Source: Burkholderiaceae bacterium (GTDB taxonomy: Bacteria > Pseudomonadota > Gammaproteobacteria > Burkholderiales > Burkholderiaceae_B). From it: DNA of 64,000 bases. Position 1 is the stretch's first letter, and every line of letters starts with the position of its first letter. A program made the translations under genes and the position numbers. Below the pieces are notes generated by a model that did not search any database, was not told where the DNA came from, and was given only the letters and a program-made list of their open reading frames with translations. Location of the stretch: NCBI GenBank assembly GCA_023653055.1, contig JAMNXR010000004.1, positions 62,001 to 126,000 on the forward strand. Direction: 5' to 3'. Of the stretch, positions 58,033 to 63,301 are shown piece after piece.

Positions 58033-58779
58033 TTAGGCCGGGTAATCTCTTGCGCCAAAAATCGCTGAGCCCACACGGATTTCTGTTGAGCCTTCTTCGA
58101 TCGCAAGCTCAAAATCTCCGCTCATGCCCATCGACAAACGATCTAGTTCGATACCTGCAATACCCTCTTGCCGAGCCTGGTCACGTAACGCACGCAATTG
58201 TGCAAAACAACGGCGCACAGCACTTTGATCTTCGGACAAAATCGCCATCGTCATGAGCCCACGCACACGCAGTGTTTGATAGCCACTGAGTTGTCGCAAA
58301 AATGGAATGAGCTCAACGGGGTCGAGTCCAGCTTTCGTCTCCTCTGGCGAGGTTTTCACTTGAACCAAGACGTCAATTGCACGTCCTTCAAGTTGAAGTC
58401 GACGGTCTAGCGCCTCAGCCAGCTCCATTCGATCCAAAGACTGTAGTTCATGAGCGAGACGTGCGACTTCTTTTGCCTTGTTGGTTTGAAGCTGACCGAT
58501 GACCACCCACTGGACATCGCAATCTGCCAAGAGCGGTGCTTTCTGTCCGATCTCTTGTGTACGATTTTCTCCAAAACGTTTGTATCCAAGGCTGACTGCA
58601 CGCCGAATCGCCTGATCGTCAAAGGTCTTACTGACGGGGAGCAGTGTGACTTCTTCTGGCGAGCGACCGACGCGCGCACACGCTTGGGCCATACGTTGCT
58701 TGATGTGTCCGATCCGCTCTGACATCGCGGTGGTGGCTGCGTCGTTCACGCCTTTAGGCTGGGAGTGGTCTGTGTGCAT
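58033..58779 (-). CDS. yggS: PLP homeostasis protein YggS
   Basis: A 248-residue alanine-racemase-N-fold protein that binds PLP and buffers B6 and amino-acid pools. It has VTLLPVSKTFDDQAIRRAVS with the PLP Lys, FGENRTQE, VQWVVIGQLQTNKAKEVA, VRGLMTMAIL and LSMGMSGDFELAIEEGSTEIRVG (split over residues 210-235). The start is uncertain (ATG 58779 or 58725). It is convergent with azurin over 25 bp and divergent from the urt operon. Confidence 0.93.
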   Translation of the reverse strand: MHTDHSQPKGVNDAATTAMSERIGHIKQRMAQACARVGRSPEEVTLLPVSKTFDDQAIRRAVSLGYKRFGENRTQEIGQKAPLLADCDVQWVVIGQLQTNKAKEVARLAHELQSLDRMELAEALDRRLQLEGRAIDVLVQVKTSPEETKAGLDPVELIPFLRQLSGYQTLRVRGLMTMAILSEDQSAVRRCFAQLRALRDQARQEGIAGIELDRLSMGMSGDFELAIEEGSTEIRVGSAIFGARDYPA

Positions 58780-58944: not shown

Positions 58945-58958
58945 GCTTCGGGGGGAGG

Positions 58959-58973
58959 GCACTGGGTAAGCGC
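58959..58973. promoter_or_regulatory. Imperfect NtrC-type box (outer left)
   Basis: GCAC-TGGGTAA-GCGC: one mismatch to GCAC-N7-GTGC. It sits at the inner edge of the left 26-bp arm. Weak alone; supported by three similar boxes downstream. Confidence 0.45.
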
Positions 58974-59009
58974 TTCGGACGGGTGGGCGTTGCCCACTAC
59001 CCTCACAAA

Positions 59010-59024
59010 GCACCGCTCGCGTGC
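59010..59024. promoter_or_regulatory. NtrC-type box 1
   Basis: GCAC-CGCTCGC-GTGC matches the NtrC dyad GCAC-N7-GTGC exactly. Its centre is about 66 bp from box 2 and about 190 bp upstream of the predicted transcription start, a normal place for an enhancer site. Confidence 0.72.
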
Positions 59025-59075
59025 ATCGTCTCCGAACTCGACCCTAAAGGGTCTCAGACAGACGGAGCCGATTTT

Positions 59076-59090
59076 GCACGTGAGCGGTGC
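59076..59090. promoter_or_regulatory. NtrC-type box 2
   Basis: GCAC-GTGAGCG-GTGC matches GCAC-N7-GTGC exactly. Its centre is about 120 bp upstream of the predicted start, similar to the distance of the NtrC sites at enteric glnA. Confidence 0.75.
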
Positions 59091-59110
59091 TTTGCTCGGC
59101 TCGTCCTGAT

Positions 59111-59125
59111 GCACTTACCCAGTAC
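59111..59125. promoter_or_regulatory. Imperfect NtrC-type box (outer right)
   Basis: GCAC-TTACCCA-GTAC: one mismatch to GCAC-N7-GTGC, at the inner edge of the right 26-bp arm and mirrored by the box at 58959. Confidence 0.45.
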
Positions 59126-59161
59126 CCTCCCCCCGAAGCAATCCTGAACAAACGCTCAAAC

Positions 59162-59177
59162 GCTAGGCAATCCTAGC
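59162..59177. repeat. Palindrome abutting the sigma-54 promoter
   Basis: GCTAGG, spacer CAAT, CCTAGC: a perfect 6-bp inverted repeat ending one base before the -24 element. It might bind a bending protein or a repressor; unknown. Confidence 0.45.
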
Positions 59178-59193
59178 TGGCACGACTCTTGCT
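59178..59193 (+). promoter_or_regulatory. Sigma-54 (-24/-12) promoter of the urt operon
   Basis: TGGCAC-GACTC-TTGCT. GG (59179-59180) and GC (59191-59192) are separated by exactly 10 bases and both flanking consensus parts are complete, so this is a near-perfect RpoN promoter. Transcription is predicted to start near 59204, leaving a leader of about 84 bases before the CAGGAG ribosome-binding site (59275-59280). Sigma-54 control with NtrC is well known for urea and other nitrogen-source uptake genes. Confidence 0.85.
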
Positions 59194-59287: not shown

Positions 59288-60538
59288 ATGCAACGCAGAA
59301 TCGCACTCAAGCAACTTACCGCCGTCAGCCTTTTAGCCATGTCAGGCTGGATGCCTGCCGCTTTTGCGCAAGACACGATCAAGGTCGGGATTTTGCATTC
59401 GTTGTCGGGAACCATGGCGATTTCAGAAACATCGCTTAAAGATGTGGCGCTGATGACGATCGAGGAGATCAACGCAAAAGGCGGTGTGATGGGCAAGAAG
59501 CTCGAGCCCGTGATTGTGGATCCCGCTTCAAACTGGCCACTTTTTGCTGAAAAAGCACGAGAGCTCATCGCTCAAAATAAAGTATCCGTTGTGTTCGGCT
59601 GCTGGACTTCCGTGTCACGCAAGTCGGTACTGCCCGTGTTTAAAGAGCTCAATAGCCTCTTGTTCTACCCAGTTCAGTATGAGGGTGAGGAGCTTGAGAA
59701 AAATGTGTTTTACACCGGTGCAGCCCCAAATCAGCAGGCGATCCCGGCTGTTGAGTATTTGATGAGCGAGGACGGCGGTGGTGCCAAGCGCTTTGTTCTG
59801 CTCGGCACGGACTATGTCTATCCACGTACAACGAATAAGATTTTACGTGCCTTCCTGAAGTCCAAAGGTGTCAAAGACAGCGACATCGAGGAAATCTACA
59901 CACCGTTCGGTCACTCCGACTATCAAACAATCGTTGCCAATATCAAGAAATTTTCAGCAGGCGGTAAAACAGCCGTTATCTCCACGATCAACGGTGACTC
60001 AAACGTACCGTTCTATAAAGAACTTGGCAATGCGGGCTTGAAAGCGACCGATGTACCCGTTGTGGCCTTCTCGGTCGGTGAAGAAGAGCTTCGGGGCGTC
60101 GACACGAAGCCGCTTGTGGGTCACCTTGCCGCATGGAACTATTTTGAGTCCCTCAAAAATCCAGTGAATGCAGATTTTGTCGCAAAATGGAAAGCCTATG
60201 CGAAAGCAAAGAACCTGCCTAATAACGCTACGGCAGTAACGAACGACCCAATGGAAGCCACTTACATCGGCATTCACATGTGGAAGCAAGCCGTCGAACA
60301 AGCAAAGTCCCTCGACACAGACAAGGTGATCGCGGCAATGGCGGGCCAGAAGTTTGCTGCGCCAGACGGCTACACGATTGAAATGGACAAGTCCAATCAT
60401 CACCTGCACAAGCCCGTCTATATCGGCGAAATTCAGGCGAATGGACAGTTCAGTGTGGTCTGGAAAAGCAAGGGGCCTATTCGCGCGCAACCTTGGAGCC
60501 CATACATTGCAGGCAATGAAGGCAAACAAGGGCTTTAA
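59288..60538 (+). CDS. urtA: Urea ABC transporter substrate-binding protein UrtA
   Basis: A 416-residue periplasmic protein of the amide/urea binding group. The signal peptide has a twin-arginine-like start (MQRRIALKQL) and ends AFA-Q. The mature part begins DTIKVGILHSLSGTMAISE and has VVFGCWTSVSRKSVLPVF and LFYPVQYEGEE, characteristic of UrtA rather than of amino-acid binders, followed by VLLGTDYVYPRTTN (residues LLGTDYVYPRTTN). ATG 59288 has CAGGAG 7 bases upstream. It is the first gene of urtABCD and lies behind a sigma-54 promoter, so nitrogen limitation should induce it. Confidence 0.95.
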   Translation: MQRRIALKQLTAVSLLAMSGWMPAAFAQDTIKVGILHSLSGTMAISETSLKDVALMTIEEINAKGGVMGKKLEPVIVDPASNWPLFAEKARELIAQNKVSVVFGCWTSVSRKSVLPVFKELNSLLFYPVQYEGEELEKNVFYTGAAPNQQAIPAVEYLMSEDGGGAKRFVLLGTDYVYPRTTNKILRAFLKSKGVKDSDIEEIYTPFGHSDYQTIVANIKKFSAGGKTAVISTINGDSNVPFYKELGNAGLKATDVPVVAFSVGEEELRGVDTKPLVGHLAAWNYFESLKNPVNADFVAKWKAYAKAKNLPNNATAVTNDPMEATYIGIHMWKQAVEQAKSLDTDKVIAAMAGQKFAAPDGYTIEMDKSNHHLHKPVYIGEIQANGQFSVVWKSKGPIRAQPWSPYIAGNEGKQGL

Positions 60539-60563: not shown

Positions 60564-62189
60564 ATGGCTTTGAATTATCCTTCTTGGAAAAGATGGTTGC
60601 TGACTGTTTTGCTCGCGTTACCGCTGCAGTTGAGCTTTGCCGCAGACTTAATCGATCGGCAAGTGCTCAGCGGCTTAGCGAGCGACAGCAACGAAGATCG
60701 GTCCAAAGCCATTACTGCACTGGGGCTTCTATCGACTCCTGGCGCAGCCGAAGTGTTGGCTGCTCTGGGGGACGGCAGCGTTCTGATTACCTCTGACGGA
60801 ACAGTATTGCTTGCTCGCAATCGCGAGCAAGCGCTGAACCCCGTCACTGGCGTCCTCGTCCCACCACCCAGCGATGCACAGTCTCTAACGCTCAACAATC
60901 GTTTAAGACGCGCCTTGCAATCTGCGCTTGCCAGTTCGGAATTATTTTCCCCACAACCCAATGTGCGACTCGTGGCTGCACAAAGGCTTCAAAAAGAGTC
61001 AGATCCTTCTCGTGCCGCTGTGATTGAGCGTGCGCTCACTCTAGAAAAAGACCCAGGGATTAGGCGTGCGCTTGAAGTCGCGTTAGCCAGCGCCGCTTTA
61101 AAAAGTCCCGAGCCTTCCATTCGCCTTAGCGCCGTCAGTGCGCTAGGAAACAGTAAAAATGCCGCATTTAAACCTGCGTTACTTGGGCTCCTCACACCCG
61201 ACAGTACTGGCCAATTTAATGAGCCTGAGGAATCTGTCCGAGCCGCTGCTAAAAAAGCGCTTTCTCAAATTGAGCAACACCAAACACTCGTCAGTTGGGT
61301 AGGAAACATTTTTTTTGGCGTGAGCCTAGGTAGCGTTTTGTTGTTGGCTGCACTGGGTCTAGCAATCACGTTCGGTTTAATGGGTGTGATCAATATGGCG
61401 CATGGCGAGCTGCTAATGATTGGCGCATATGCGACATATATCGTACAAAGTTTGTTCAAACAGTGGCTGCCCAACTGGATCGACTGGTATGTGTTGACCG
61501 CATTACCCGTTGCATTTTTTATCACAGCTCTCGTAGGGATGGCGCTTGAGCGCACCGTCATTCGATGGCTCTACGGTCGCCCTCTTGAGACCTTACTCGC
61601 GACCTGGGGCATCAGCTTAATGTTGATGCAAGCGGTCAGGAGTATTTTCGGTGCGCAAAACGTCGAAGTCGCCAATCCTAGCTGGATGAGTGGCGGCATC
61701 ACGGTCTTGGGAAACCTGACGCTCAGCTACAACCGTCTCGTCATTATCGGCTTTGCCTTCTGTGTTGTGATTGCCGTTTGGTTGGTTTTGAATTTCACAC
61801 GTCTCGGTTTATTTGTACGTGCCATCACACAAAACAGGCGCATGGCTGATTGTGTCGGCGTACCAACGGGTCGCATCGATATGCTGGCCTTCGGCCTAGG
61901 TTCCGGCATTGCGGGGTTAGCGGGGGTTGCACTGTCACAACTAAGTAATGTCGGCCCCGATCTTGGGCGAGGCTACATCGTCGACTCCTTTATGGTGGTG
62001 GTCTTAGGTGGCGTGGGGCAGCTCGCCGGAACAGTCGTAGCGGCACTTGGTTTGGGTGTGCTCAATAAAATAATCGAACCCTTCTGGGGCGCAGTGATCG
62101 CCAAAATCGCAATTCTGCTTTTTATCGTTCTGTTCGTGCAAAAGCGCCCTCAAGGACTCTTTGCTCCAAAAGGTAGGAGCGCAGAATGA
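60564..62189 (+). CDS. urtB: Urea ABC transporter permease UrtB
   Basis: A 541-residue permease. A signal-like N terminus and an extracytoplasmic region of about 210 residues with HEAT-like helical repeats (ALASAALKSPEPSIRLSAVS) precede a LivH-type membrane domain (about 245-535; GLAITFGLMGVINMAHGELL, EAA-like GLGSGIAGLAGVAL, VVVLGGVGQLAGTV). The long N-terminal part is typical of UrtB and absent from LivH. It overlaps urtC by 4 bp. Confidence 0.94.
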   Translation: MALNYPSWKRWLLTVLLALPLQLSFAADLIDRQVLSGLASDSNEDRSKAITALGLLSTPGAAEVLAALGDGSVLITSDGTVLLARNREQALNPVTGVLVPPPSDAQSLTLNNRLRRALQSALASSELFSPQPNVRLVAAQRLQKESDPSRAAVIERALTLEKDPGIRRALEVALASAALKSPEPSIRLSAVSALGNSKNAAFKPALLGLLTPDSTGQFNEPEESVRAAAKKALSQIEQHQTLVSWVGNIFFGVSLGSVLLLAALGLAITFGLMGVINMAHGELLMIGAYATYIVQSLFKQWLPNWIDWYVLTALPVAFFITALVGMALERTVIRWLYGRPLETLLATWGISLMLMQAVRSIFGAQNVEVANPSWMSGGITVLGNLTLSYNRLVIIGFAFCVVIAVWLVLNFTRLGLFVRAITQNRRMADCVGVPTGRIDMLAFGLGSGIAGLAGVALSQLSNVGPDLGRGYIVDSFMVVVLGGVGQLAGTVVAALGLGVLNKIIEPFWGAVIAKIAILLFIVLFVQKRPQGLFAPKGRSAE

Positions 62190-63301
62190 ATACTGTGAAC
62201 ACGCACCCAACAATCCCTCAATCTGTCGGCTTGTATTCTCGAAATGCCTGGCTAGGTATTGCCATCGTTGTCATTGTATTGGCCAGCCTACCGGCTTTAA
62301 ATTTGATATTTCCTGCAGGACATGCCTTACATATTTCGTCCTTTGCCATTGCGTTGATTGGCAAGTTCTTATGCTACGCACTTGCCGCACTCGCGCTTGA
62401 TCTCGTATGGGGCTATACCGGCATTTTGTCACTAGGCCATGGTTTGTTTTTCGCGCTTGGTGGCTATGCCCATGGCATGTACCTCATGCGTGCGGCAAAA
62501 TCTTCTCCAGAGATGTTGCCTGACTTTATGGGCTTTCTTAGCTGGAAAACATTTCCTTGGTTCTGGTCGTTTACCGAGCACTTTTGGTATGCCATGCTGT
62601 TAGTTGTGCTTGTCCCTGGTTTACTTGCCTTTCTGTTTGGTTACTTTGCGTTTCGCTCACGCATCAAAGGTGTTTATTTTTCAATCATCACTCAAGCCTT
62701 AACTTTTGCTGCCATGCTGCTGTTCTTTCGAAATGAAACCGGTTTTGGCGGAAATAACGGCTTTACCGATTTCAAAAAAATTCTTGGCTTCGACATTACC
62801 GCGGCGGACACGCGTGCAGTTTTGTATTGGGTCAGCTTGGCGGTGCTGCTTGCCTCACTCATCGTTGCGCGTGCCATTACGCAATCAAAGCTAGGGCGCG
62901 TCCTCACAGCCATCCGCGACTCGGAAAATCGATTGCGATTTTTAGGGTATGAACCTCTCGGTTTTAAACTGTTCATCTGGACGGTCTCGGCCATTCTCTG
63001 CGCCATCGCAGGTGCCTTGTATGTCCCGCAAGTCGGCATCATCAACCCCAGCGAAATGTCGACGGAAAACTCTATCGAAATGGTGATCTGGGTCGCGACT
63101 GGCGGCAGAGGCACCTTAATTGGCCCGATCATCGGAGCGGGCACAATCAATGGCCTGAAAACCTGGTTTACCAGTGTATTTCCTGAGTTTTGGCTTTATG
63201 CCCTAGGTCTTATTTTTGTTTTGGTGACGTTGTTCTTGCCACAAGGCATTGTTGGTCTGGCACGGCAAATAGGACAGCGAATCAAAGGATTGAAAGCATG
63301 A
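62186..63301 (+). CDS. urtC: Urea ABC transporter permease UrtC
   Basis: A 371-residue LivM-type permease. It has ALALDLVWGYTGILSLGHGL, a loop with the UrtC-like SWKTFPWFWSFTEHFWYAM, RSRIKGVYFSIITQALTFA, NNGFTDFKKILGFD and AIRDSENRLRFLGYEPL. About nine hydrophobic segments are visible. It is coupled to urtB and urtD by 4-bp ATGA overlaps at both ends. Confidence 0.94.
   Translation: MNTVNTHPTIPQSVGLYSRNAWLGIAIVVIVLASLPALNLIFPAGHALHISSFAIALIGKFLCYALAALALDLVWGYTGILSLGHGLFFALGGYAHGMYLMRAAKSSPEMLPDFMGFLSWKTFPWFWSFTEHFWYAMLLVVLVPGLLAFLFGYFAFRSRIKGVYFSIITQALTFAAMLLFFRNETGFGGNNGFTDFKKILGFDITAADTRAVLYWVSLAVLLASLIVARAITQSKLGRVLTAIRDSENRLRFLGYEPLGFKLFIWTVSAILCAIAGALYVPQVGIINPSEMSTENSIEMVIWVATGGRGTLIGPIIGAGTINGLKTWFTSVFPEFWLYALGLIFVLVTLFLPQGIVGLARQIGQRIKGLKA

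What the first reader, a model, noticed from the sequence alone, without database searches (positions are those of the whole stretch)
58945..59193. Four NtrC-type boxes and a near-perfect sigma-54 promoter control urtABCD
Seen: TGGCAC-N5-TTGCT at 59178-59193 with GG-N10-GC. Upstream are two exact GCAC-N7-GTGC dyads (59010, 59076) and two with one mismatch (58959, 59111), spaced 51, 66 and 35 bp centre to centre. Known: this is the site pattern of NtrC enhancers acting on RpoN promoters. Inferred: urea uptake is switched on by nitrogen limitation through a four-site enhancer, richer than the usual two.
Basis: partly seen in the sequence, partly recalled or inferred. Interest (0 to 1): 0.72.

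Follow-up and report, generated by a model that had tools for sequence, protein, structure and literature searches.

The report
Nitrogen-control enhancer inside a palindromic repeat
The urea-uptake genes of this bacterium have a real, conserved nitrogen-controlled promoter, but the "four regulator boxes" seen upstream are two mirror-image pairs on the arms of one copy of a widespread palindromic DNA repeat that I could not find described, and only the inner pair looks like a real regulator site.

Summary
Observation confirmed letter by letter; interpretation partly supported. The -24/-12 promoter (59178-59193) is real: a match lies 105-116 bp before urtA in 23 of 23 urtA-bearing genomes of the genus. 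RpoN is present, and NtrC is the only strong sigma-54 activator found. The four dyads are not four independent boxes: they are mirrored pairs on the arms of a 195-bp imperfect palindrome, 58945-59139. It is one copy of a structured repeat family: three close copies at this urt operon, matches in 20 of 143 genomes sampled across the class, no Rfam match. The inner dyads (59010, 59076) score 14.9 and 13.3 bits, like true NtrC sites; the eight sigma-54-like sites without a good dyad in this genome give at most 4.1. The outer two score as background. 18 of 18 urtA genomes without the element there have strong dyads; the four others that carry it do not. Best reading: the element occupies the enhancer region, and here its inner stem has become a two-site NtrC enhancer. 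New part: the repeat family, with fast-changing but self-complementary arms.

The parts
59178..59193 (+). sigma-54 (-24/-12) promoter of urtABCDE, TGGCACGACTCTTGCT
   Evidence: only perfect match in the window; 14 in genome vs 2 for the reversed pattern; same place in 23 of 23 urtA genomes of the genus, 0-2 mismatches
58945..59139 (+). element E1: 195-bp imperfect palindrome, one copy of a structured repeat family
   Evidence: model R2 hit 58977-59110, 93.4 bits, the only one in the window at E up to 1
58981..58998 (+). 5' hairpin GGGTGGGC-N3-GCCCACT shared by genus elements
   Evidence: found in 24 genus elements by pattern; invariant in the 22 aligned, but these were picked by this hairpin; two blastn-found copies, G015 and G022b, lack it
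59006..59025 (+). left inner arm of E1, carrying probable NtrC dyad 59010-59024 (GCACCGCTCGCGTGC, 14.9 bits)
59035..59060 (+). central hairpin AACTCGRCCC-N-GGGYCTCARACA, the family signature
59075..59094 (+). right inner arm of E1, carrying probable NtrC dyad 59076-59090 (GCACGTGAGCGGTGC, 13.3 bits), mirror of the left one
59288..60538 (+). urtA, first gene of urtABCDE (urtB 60564-62189, urtC 62186-63301, urtD from 63298; urtE beyond the window)
   Evidence: NCBIfam TIGR03407, 03409, 03408, 03411, 03410, each over its cut-off
58033..58779 (-). yggS (PLP-dependent family), divergent neighbour
   Evidence: NCBIfam TIGR00044

Best explanation
urtABCDE is transcribed by RNA polymerase with RpoN from the -24/-12 promoter at 59178-59193 and is switched on under nitrogen limitation by phosphorylated NtrC. 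In 18 of 23 urtA genomes of the genus, NtrC-type dyads lie about 45-240 bp upstream of the -24 element. In this genome that stretch is occupied by E1, a 195-bp palindromic repeat, and the two inner-arm dyads of E1 (102 and 168 bp upstream of the -24 element) have become the NtrC enhancer. Because the two arms mirror each other, one site gives two. The outer-arm dyads are not NtrC sites. E1 is one copy of a chromosomal repeat family whose palindromic form is conserved while its arm sequence changes quickly, most simply by hairpin-templated copying of one arm onto the other. Shown: promoter conservation, the palindrome, the family, paired change, site scores. Inferred: NtrC binding and co-option of the arms. 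Inferred and least certain: how the arms are rewritten.
For: Promoter at the same place in 23 of 23 genomes. NtrC the only strong activator found. Of 14 consensus sigma-54 sites in this genome, 6 have a dyad of at least 12 bits within 350 bp (among them glnA 19.9, a PII-type gene 18.9 and urtA 14.9/13.3) and the other 8 reach at most 4.1. 18 of 18 urtA genomes without the element within 450 bp have a dyad of at least 14.1 bits, many in pairs 49-50 bp apart. Of 125 family elements examined, only this one carries an exact GCAC-N7-GTGC, and it sits at a sigma-54 promoter. Palindrome and family.
Against: The four relatives with the element at urtA lack good dyads (best 6.7-10.5 bits), so either NtrC control was weakened there, or NtrC works from poorer sites and the arm dyads here may be accidental. 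The weight matrix was trained on 25 dyads that I chose from 17 of the 18 genomes it is then said to find, weaker dyads left out; independent checks are only G013 (19.0, 17.6) and the other promoters of this genome. Exact dyads are barely above background genome-wide (59 vs 50). Nothing was tested by experiment.
Confidence: 0.6

Rival explanations
1. All dyads are accidents of a palindromic repeat that came to lie upstream of urtA and displaced the ancestral enhancer; NtrC now acts from weaker sites upstream of E1 (for instance 58840, 448 bp before the ATG) or from solution.
For: Four element-bearing relatives lack good dyads. A dyad-like site just upstream of E1 scores 9.2 here (shuffle limit 9.3) and its counterpart 10.5 in G029 (limit 8.5), but only 5.0 in G022. 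Exact dyads are near background genome-wide.
Against: Only this element of 125 has exact dyads, and its scores fall with the likely true sites of this genome, far from the others.
Confidence: 0.3
2. One reading: four independent NtrC boxes forming an unusually rich enhancer.
For: The four dyads exist at the stated places.
Against: They are two mirrored pairs on complementary arms; the outer pair scores 6.6 and 4.2, under the shuffle limit of 9.3; the set is not conserved in relatives.
Confidence: 0.05
3. E1 acts as RNA (a cis-regulatory or small RNA, from either strand).
For: Strong paired change (24 of 39 pairs with double changes; 139 cells vs 38.8 in shuffles) and constant hairpins. In the outer arms A.C mismatches exceed G.T on the motif strand (59 vs 32), which would be G.U on the opposite strand, so an RNA from that strand is not excluded.
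Against: On the motif strand G.T is not in excess of A.C (inner 50 vs 44, outer 32 vs 59); no Rfam match at gathering score or E 0.1; E1 lies upstream of the urtA promoter.
Confidence: 0.12
4. The elements are REP/REPIN-type repeats moved by a RAYT tyrosine transposase.
For: Frequent inverted twin arrangement and intergenic placement like REP doublets (PMC2817692 and PMC3733652, passages seen). One carrier, G016, does have a Y1_Tnp gene.
Against: Units of 194-198 bp with variable arms instead of short constant palindromes; Y1_Tnp not found in this genome nor in nine other genus genomes that carry close copies (G002, G011, G012, G015, G020, G021, G022, G029, G031).
Confidence: 0.1

Closest known systems
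NtrC-RpoN controlled urea transport (urt) operons of Burkholderiales, e.g. Burkholderia cenocepacia H111 (PMC5491218, passages seen)
   Same: urt genes dependent on NtrC there, by RNA-seq of an ntrC mutant; here the same gene set behind a -24/-12 promoter with NtrC-type dyads
   Different: here the dyads lie on the arms of a palindromic repeat; NtrC dependence not tested
REP / BIME / REPIN repeats (PMC2817692 and PMC3733652, passages seen; PMC3116915, search listing only)
   Same: chromosomal, intergenic, palindromic, often in inverted twins, changes in stems that keep pairing
   Different: several times longer, with two fast-changing self-complementary arm pairs around constant hairpins; five copies in this genome; no RAYT found in it
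integron attC sites (recalled, not tested)
   Same: structure conserved while arm sequence varies
   Different: neither attC core sites nor an integrase were looked for

Membership tests
sigma-54 promoter | TGGCAC-N5-TTGCW with the GG and GC present | tested here: met
sigma-54 promoter | RpoN encoded in the genome | tested here: met
   PF04552, 200.9 bits
sigma-54 promoter | transcription starts about 12 bases after the GC | not testable with these tools
   no RNA data
NtrC enhancer | dyad of the GCACC-N5-GGTGC type upstream of the promoter, in the range seen in relatives | tested here: met
   inner pair 14.9 and 13.3 bits; outer pair fails
NtrC enhancer | site conserved in close relatives with the same upstream element | tested here: not met
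   other four genomes with the element 6.7-10.5 bits
NtrC enhancer | NtrC binds and activates | not testable with these tools
   needs footprint or mutant
REP/REPIN | short constant palindrome (20-40 bp) in many copies | tested here: not met
   194-198 bp units with variable arms, 5 copies in this genome
REP/REPIN | RAYT (Y1 transposase) in the genome | tested here: not met
   0 matches in G000; one carrier of the element, G016, has one
REP/REPIN | GTAG or CGTC tag at one end of the palindrome | not tested
   the tags were read about but not looked for in the elements
Rfam RNA family | match at gathering score | tested here: not met
   7 loci, none; 6 loci at E 0.1, none; E1 region at E 5: two plant miRNA families far below their cut-offs (35.3 of 196 and 27 of 137 bits)
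integron attC | attC core sites and an integrase | not tested
   comparison recalled only

The most novel reading that the evidence does not exclude
A broadly distributed, undescribed class of chromosomal DNA elements, often twin convergent palindromes, whose arms are continually rewritten in step so that form outlives sequence. One copy has captured an enhancer position, so that a two-site NtrC enhancer is duplicated and kept alike by hairpin-templated copying, and may switch between duplex and cruciform states that change NtrC access.
Probability: 0.25. Interest if true: 0.75.

Novelty: new variant of a known kind. Interest (0 to 1): 0.5.

Why it matters
It corrects a promoter reading that looked textbook, and shows how mirrored repeats can mimic multi-site enhancers in sequence scans. 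It also points to a repeat family, found in 20 of 143 genomes sampled across the class and matched by its signature in records labelled as other phyla, with strong paired change and no Rfam match, whose origin, mobility and effect on neighbouring genes are open and testable.

Tried and rejected
Rejected: the four-box enhancer (outer boxes score as background). RAYT mobilisation as the general explanation (none in this genome and nine other carriers, but G016, also a carrier, has one, and so do G010, G013-type weak carriers' neighbours G019, G026 and G030, which have only weaker model matches, except that G013 itself has none). A phage or plasmid home for the family (signature pattern: 0 in viral contigs; blastn of an Azonexus twin: none in phages, one plasmid record with a 42-base match; the E1 region: no match in plasmids). 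An RNA role judged from G.T against A.C mismatches: only 93 inner and 46 outer arm pairs of 129 elements passed my score limits, and the outer arms show A.C above G.T (59 vs 32), which I cannot explain and which would allow an RNA from the opposite strand. Element-to-element deletion as the reason why G031 lacks urt: G031 keeps one element between yggS and tcuA, but E1 and E3 are in inverted orientation here, so deletion between them is not expected; left open. Terminator role: of 95 element clusters, 70 had a called gene on both sides, 47 between co-directional, 16 between convergent and 7 between divergent genes (crude ORF calls); not decisive. Genes between widely spaced + and - copies: an enoyl-CoA hydratase and a DUF4062 protein, a CDF-like transporter by eye, a 261-aa protein without a Pfam match and one unscanned protein; none looked like a transposase, but not all were scanned.

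Literature: letter searches for the central hairpin (37 papers, 30 listed) and for repeat ends seen in L268 plus one recalled peptide (3 papers) listed nothing that, by title and abstract start, concerned bacterial repeats. Descriptive searches listed REP/RAYT papers and a few other bacterial repeat papers that I did not open; none was recognisable from its listing as this family. Only open-licence papers are held. I recall, from no call, that repeats with similar ends are common in Xanthomonas and Pseudomonas genomes, so somebody may have described the family under another name.

Full report
What was claimed and what is there. The downstream genes are urtA, B, C and D, with urtE just outside the window; the divergent neighbour is yggS.

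The promoter. It is the only perfect TGGCACN5TTGCW in the window. In the whole genome there are 14, against 2 for the reversed pattern. Of 32 genus genomes searched, 23 have urtA, and a site with 0-2 mismatches lies 105-116 bp before the urtA start codon in 23 of 23. RpoN is present. One protein passes the NtrC cut-off of TIGR01818 and is the only strong PF00158 activator (234.8 bits); four others pass Pfam's low cut-off with 20.9-28.2 bits, a level also reached in archaeal control genomes. So if the promoter works, NtrC is the likely activator, although the genome is only 95% complete. This fits the published NtrC dependence of urt genes in Burkholderia cenocepacia (PMC5491218, passages).

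The boxes. The region 58945-59139 is a long imperfect palindrome (arms of 32 nt at 91% and 20 nt at 95%; DNA folding z -12.0; RNA z -13.9). Boxes 59010 and 59076 lie on its inner arms, 58959 and 59111 on its outer arms, so each pair is essentially one sequence read twice. A weight matrix was made from 25 dyads that I chose upstream of urtA in 17 genomes without the element there. It scores the inner dyads at 14.9 and 13.3 bits and the outer ones at 6.6 and 4.2; the 95% point of the maximum in 200 base-composition shuffles is 9.3. Of the 14 sigma-54 sites in this genome, 6 have a dyad of at least 12 bits within 350 bp: before a 282-aa protein (16.9), urtA (14.9, 13.3), a 475-aa ORF (12.2), glnA (19.9), a 460-aa ORF (15.1, 13.4) and a PII-type gene (18.9, 12.7). 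The other 8 reach at most 4.1 (glnA and PII named by eye from the protein starts). The inner dyads therefore group with the likely true sites.

Relatives. 18 of 18 urtA genomes without the element within 450 bp have a dyad of at least 14.1 bits, many in pairs 49-50 bp apart. Seventeen of these gave the training sites; G013 did not and scores 19.0 and 17.6. The five genomes with the element there are this one (14.9, 13.3) and G022, G029, G021 and G012, whose best dyads score 8.3, 10.5, 9.0 and 6.7. So the element occupies the enhancer region, and only this genome shows strong dyads in it. Of 125 family elements examined, only this one has an exact dyad, and it has two. Co-option of the inner arms is favoured; accidental dyads remain possible, since exact dyads are near background in the genome (59 vs 50) and the site was picked because of them.

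The element family. Two close copies lie just past urtE, before tcuA, in convergent orientation; model R2 finds five copies in the genome. Blastn finds relatives in 12 of 61 genomes searched: 11 of the genus, this one included, and one weak 27-base match outside it. Model R1 finds matches in 19 of 32 genus genomes, some of them weak or of a sister type. Close copies sit at fixed places: yggS-[E1]-urtABCDE-[E2][E3]-tcuAB here and in G021; G029 has the same urt-tcu order (yggS is not on its contig), G022 the same with only part of E2 detected, and Zwartia vadi (G012) one copy on each side of urt (G012 is matched to Zwartia vadi by its 193,792-bp contig; lineage of Zwartia). G031 lacks urt and has one element between yggS and tcuA. 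The aligned copies share two hairpins, GGGTGGGC-N3-GCCCACT (by which they were picked; G015 and G022b lack it) and AACTCGRCCC-N-GGGYCTCARACA, while two arm pairs differ between copies yet stay complementary within most of them. On 22 genus elements, 39 pairs are 96.3% standard, 24 pairs have double changes (17.2 in shuffles), and 139 cells do (38.8 in shuffles; 16-26 when slid); cells count sequences, not events. In 92 of those 115 loci model R1 finds 142 elements. Of 52 neighbouring pairs within a locus, 48 are convergent, 44 of these 38-287 bp apart; about half of the 95 clusters are such twins (46 by my count of the rows), the rest single or cut. Model R2 finds the family in 20 of 143 genomes spread over the class, this one included, with up to 23 copies. 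Rfam has no match (in one search only plant miRNA families far below their cut-offs).

How the arms change. In the elements before urtA of five genomes, left and right outer arms agree at 25-26 of 28-30 aligned bases within a copy. Between species left arms agree at 16-26 of 27-30 and right arms at 20-28 of 30-32; for the closest pairs (this genome and G022, G021 and G012) the between-species figures approach the within-copy ones, so the contrast rests on the more distant pairs. Between G021 and Zwartia vadi the flanks keep their direction but the core is inverted (alignment score 207 inverted, 30 direct; flanks 200 and 183 direct, 33 and 54 inverted). G.T mismatches are not commoner than A.C on the motif strand (50 vs 44 inner; 32 vs 59 outer). 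Together this suggests maintenance at the DNA level, for instance by template switching inside the hairpin; this is inferred, not shown, and the outer-arm excess of A.C leaves an RNA from the other strand possible.

Verdict. The finding is a correct sighting of a conserved, ordinary NtrC/RpoN urea promoter with an over-read enhancer: two plausible sites, not four. The unexpected part is that these sites sit on the arms of a palindromic repeat of a family that I could not find described (searches).

Noticed in passing
L238:2871-4169 and L239:2560-3822; G000:C22:101912-102049: A sister type (AACTCGCCCC-N-GGGGCTCAGACA) flanks a single enoyl-CoA hydratase gene in + ... - orientation in G021 and G022; only one of the two was found in the window's own genome.
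   Followed up: partly
L049:9283-9583 and L054:1-171 (G016): The copy after urtE in G016 has poorly matching outer arms, and by eye its right arm looks complementary to the left arm of the copy before tcuA on another contig: inversion between the copies or an assembly artefact.
   Followed up: no
L043:5870-6066 (Zwartia vadi): The core of the element before urtA is inverted relative to G021 between similar outer arms.
   Followed up: partly
L125:6101-7590, L110:1135-2831, L265:810-2033, L266:937-3233: Widely spaced + and - elements have genes between them (DUF4062 protein, CDF-like transporter by eye, others), as if cargo sat inside the twin.
   Followed up: partly
L268:650-1080: A tight twin in G172 is bounded by inverted AAAAAGTAACCAAAA / TTTTGGTTACTTTTC ends, reminiscent (from memory) of common repeats in Xanthomonas and Pseudomonas.
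   Followed up: no
G000:C18:122614-122697: A glnA-like gene has a textbook NtrC dyad (GCACCGTTATGGTGC) 68 bp upstream of a sigma-54 promoter, a useful control in this genome.
   Followed up: yes
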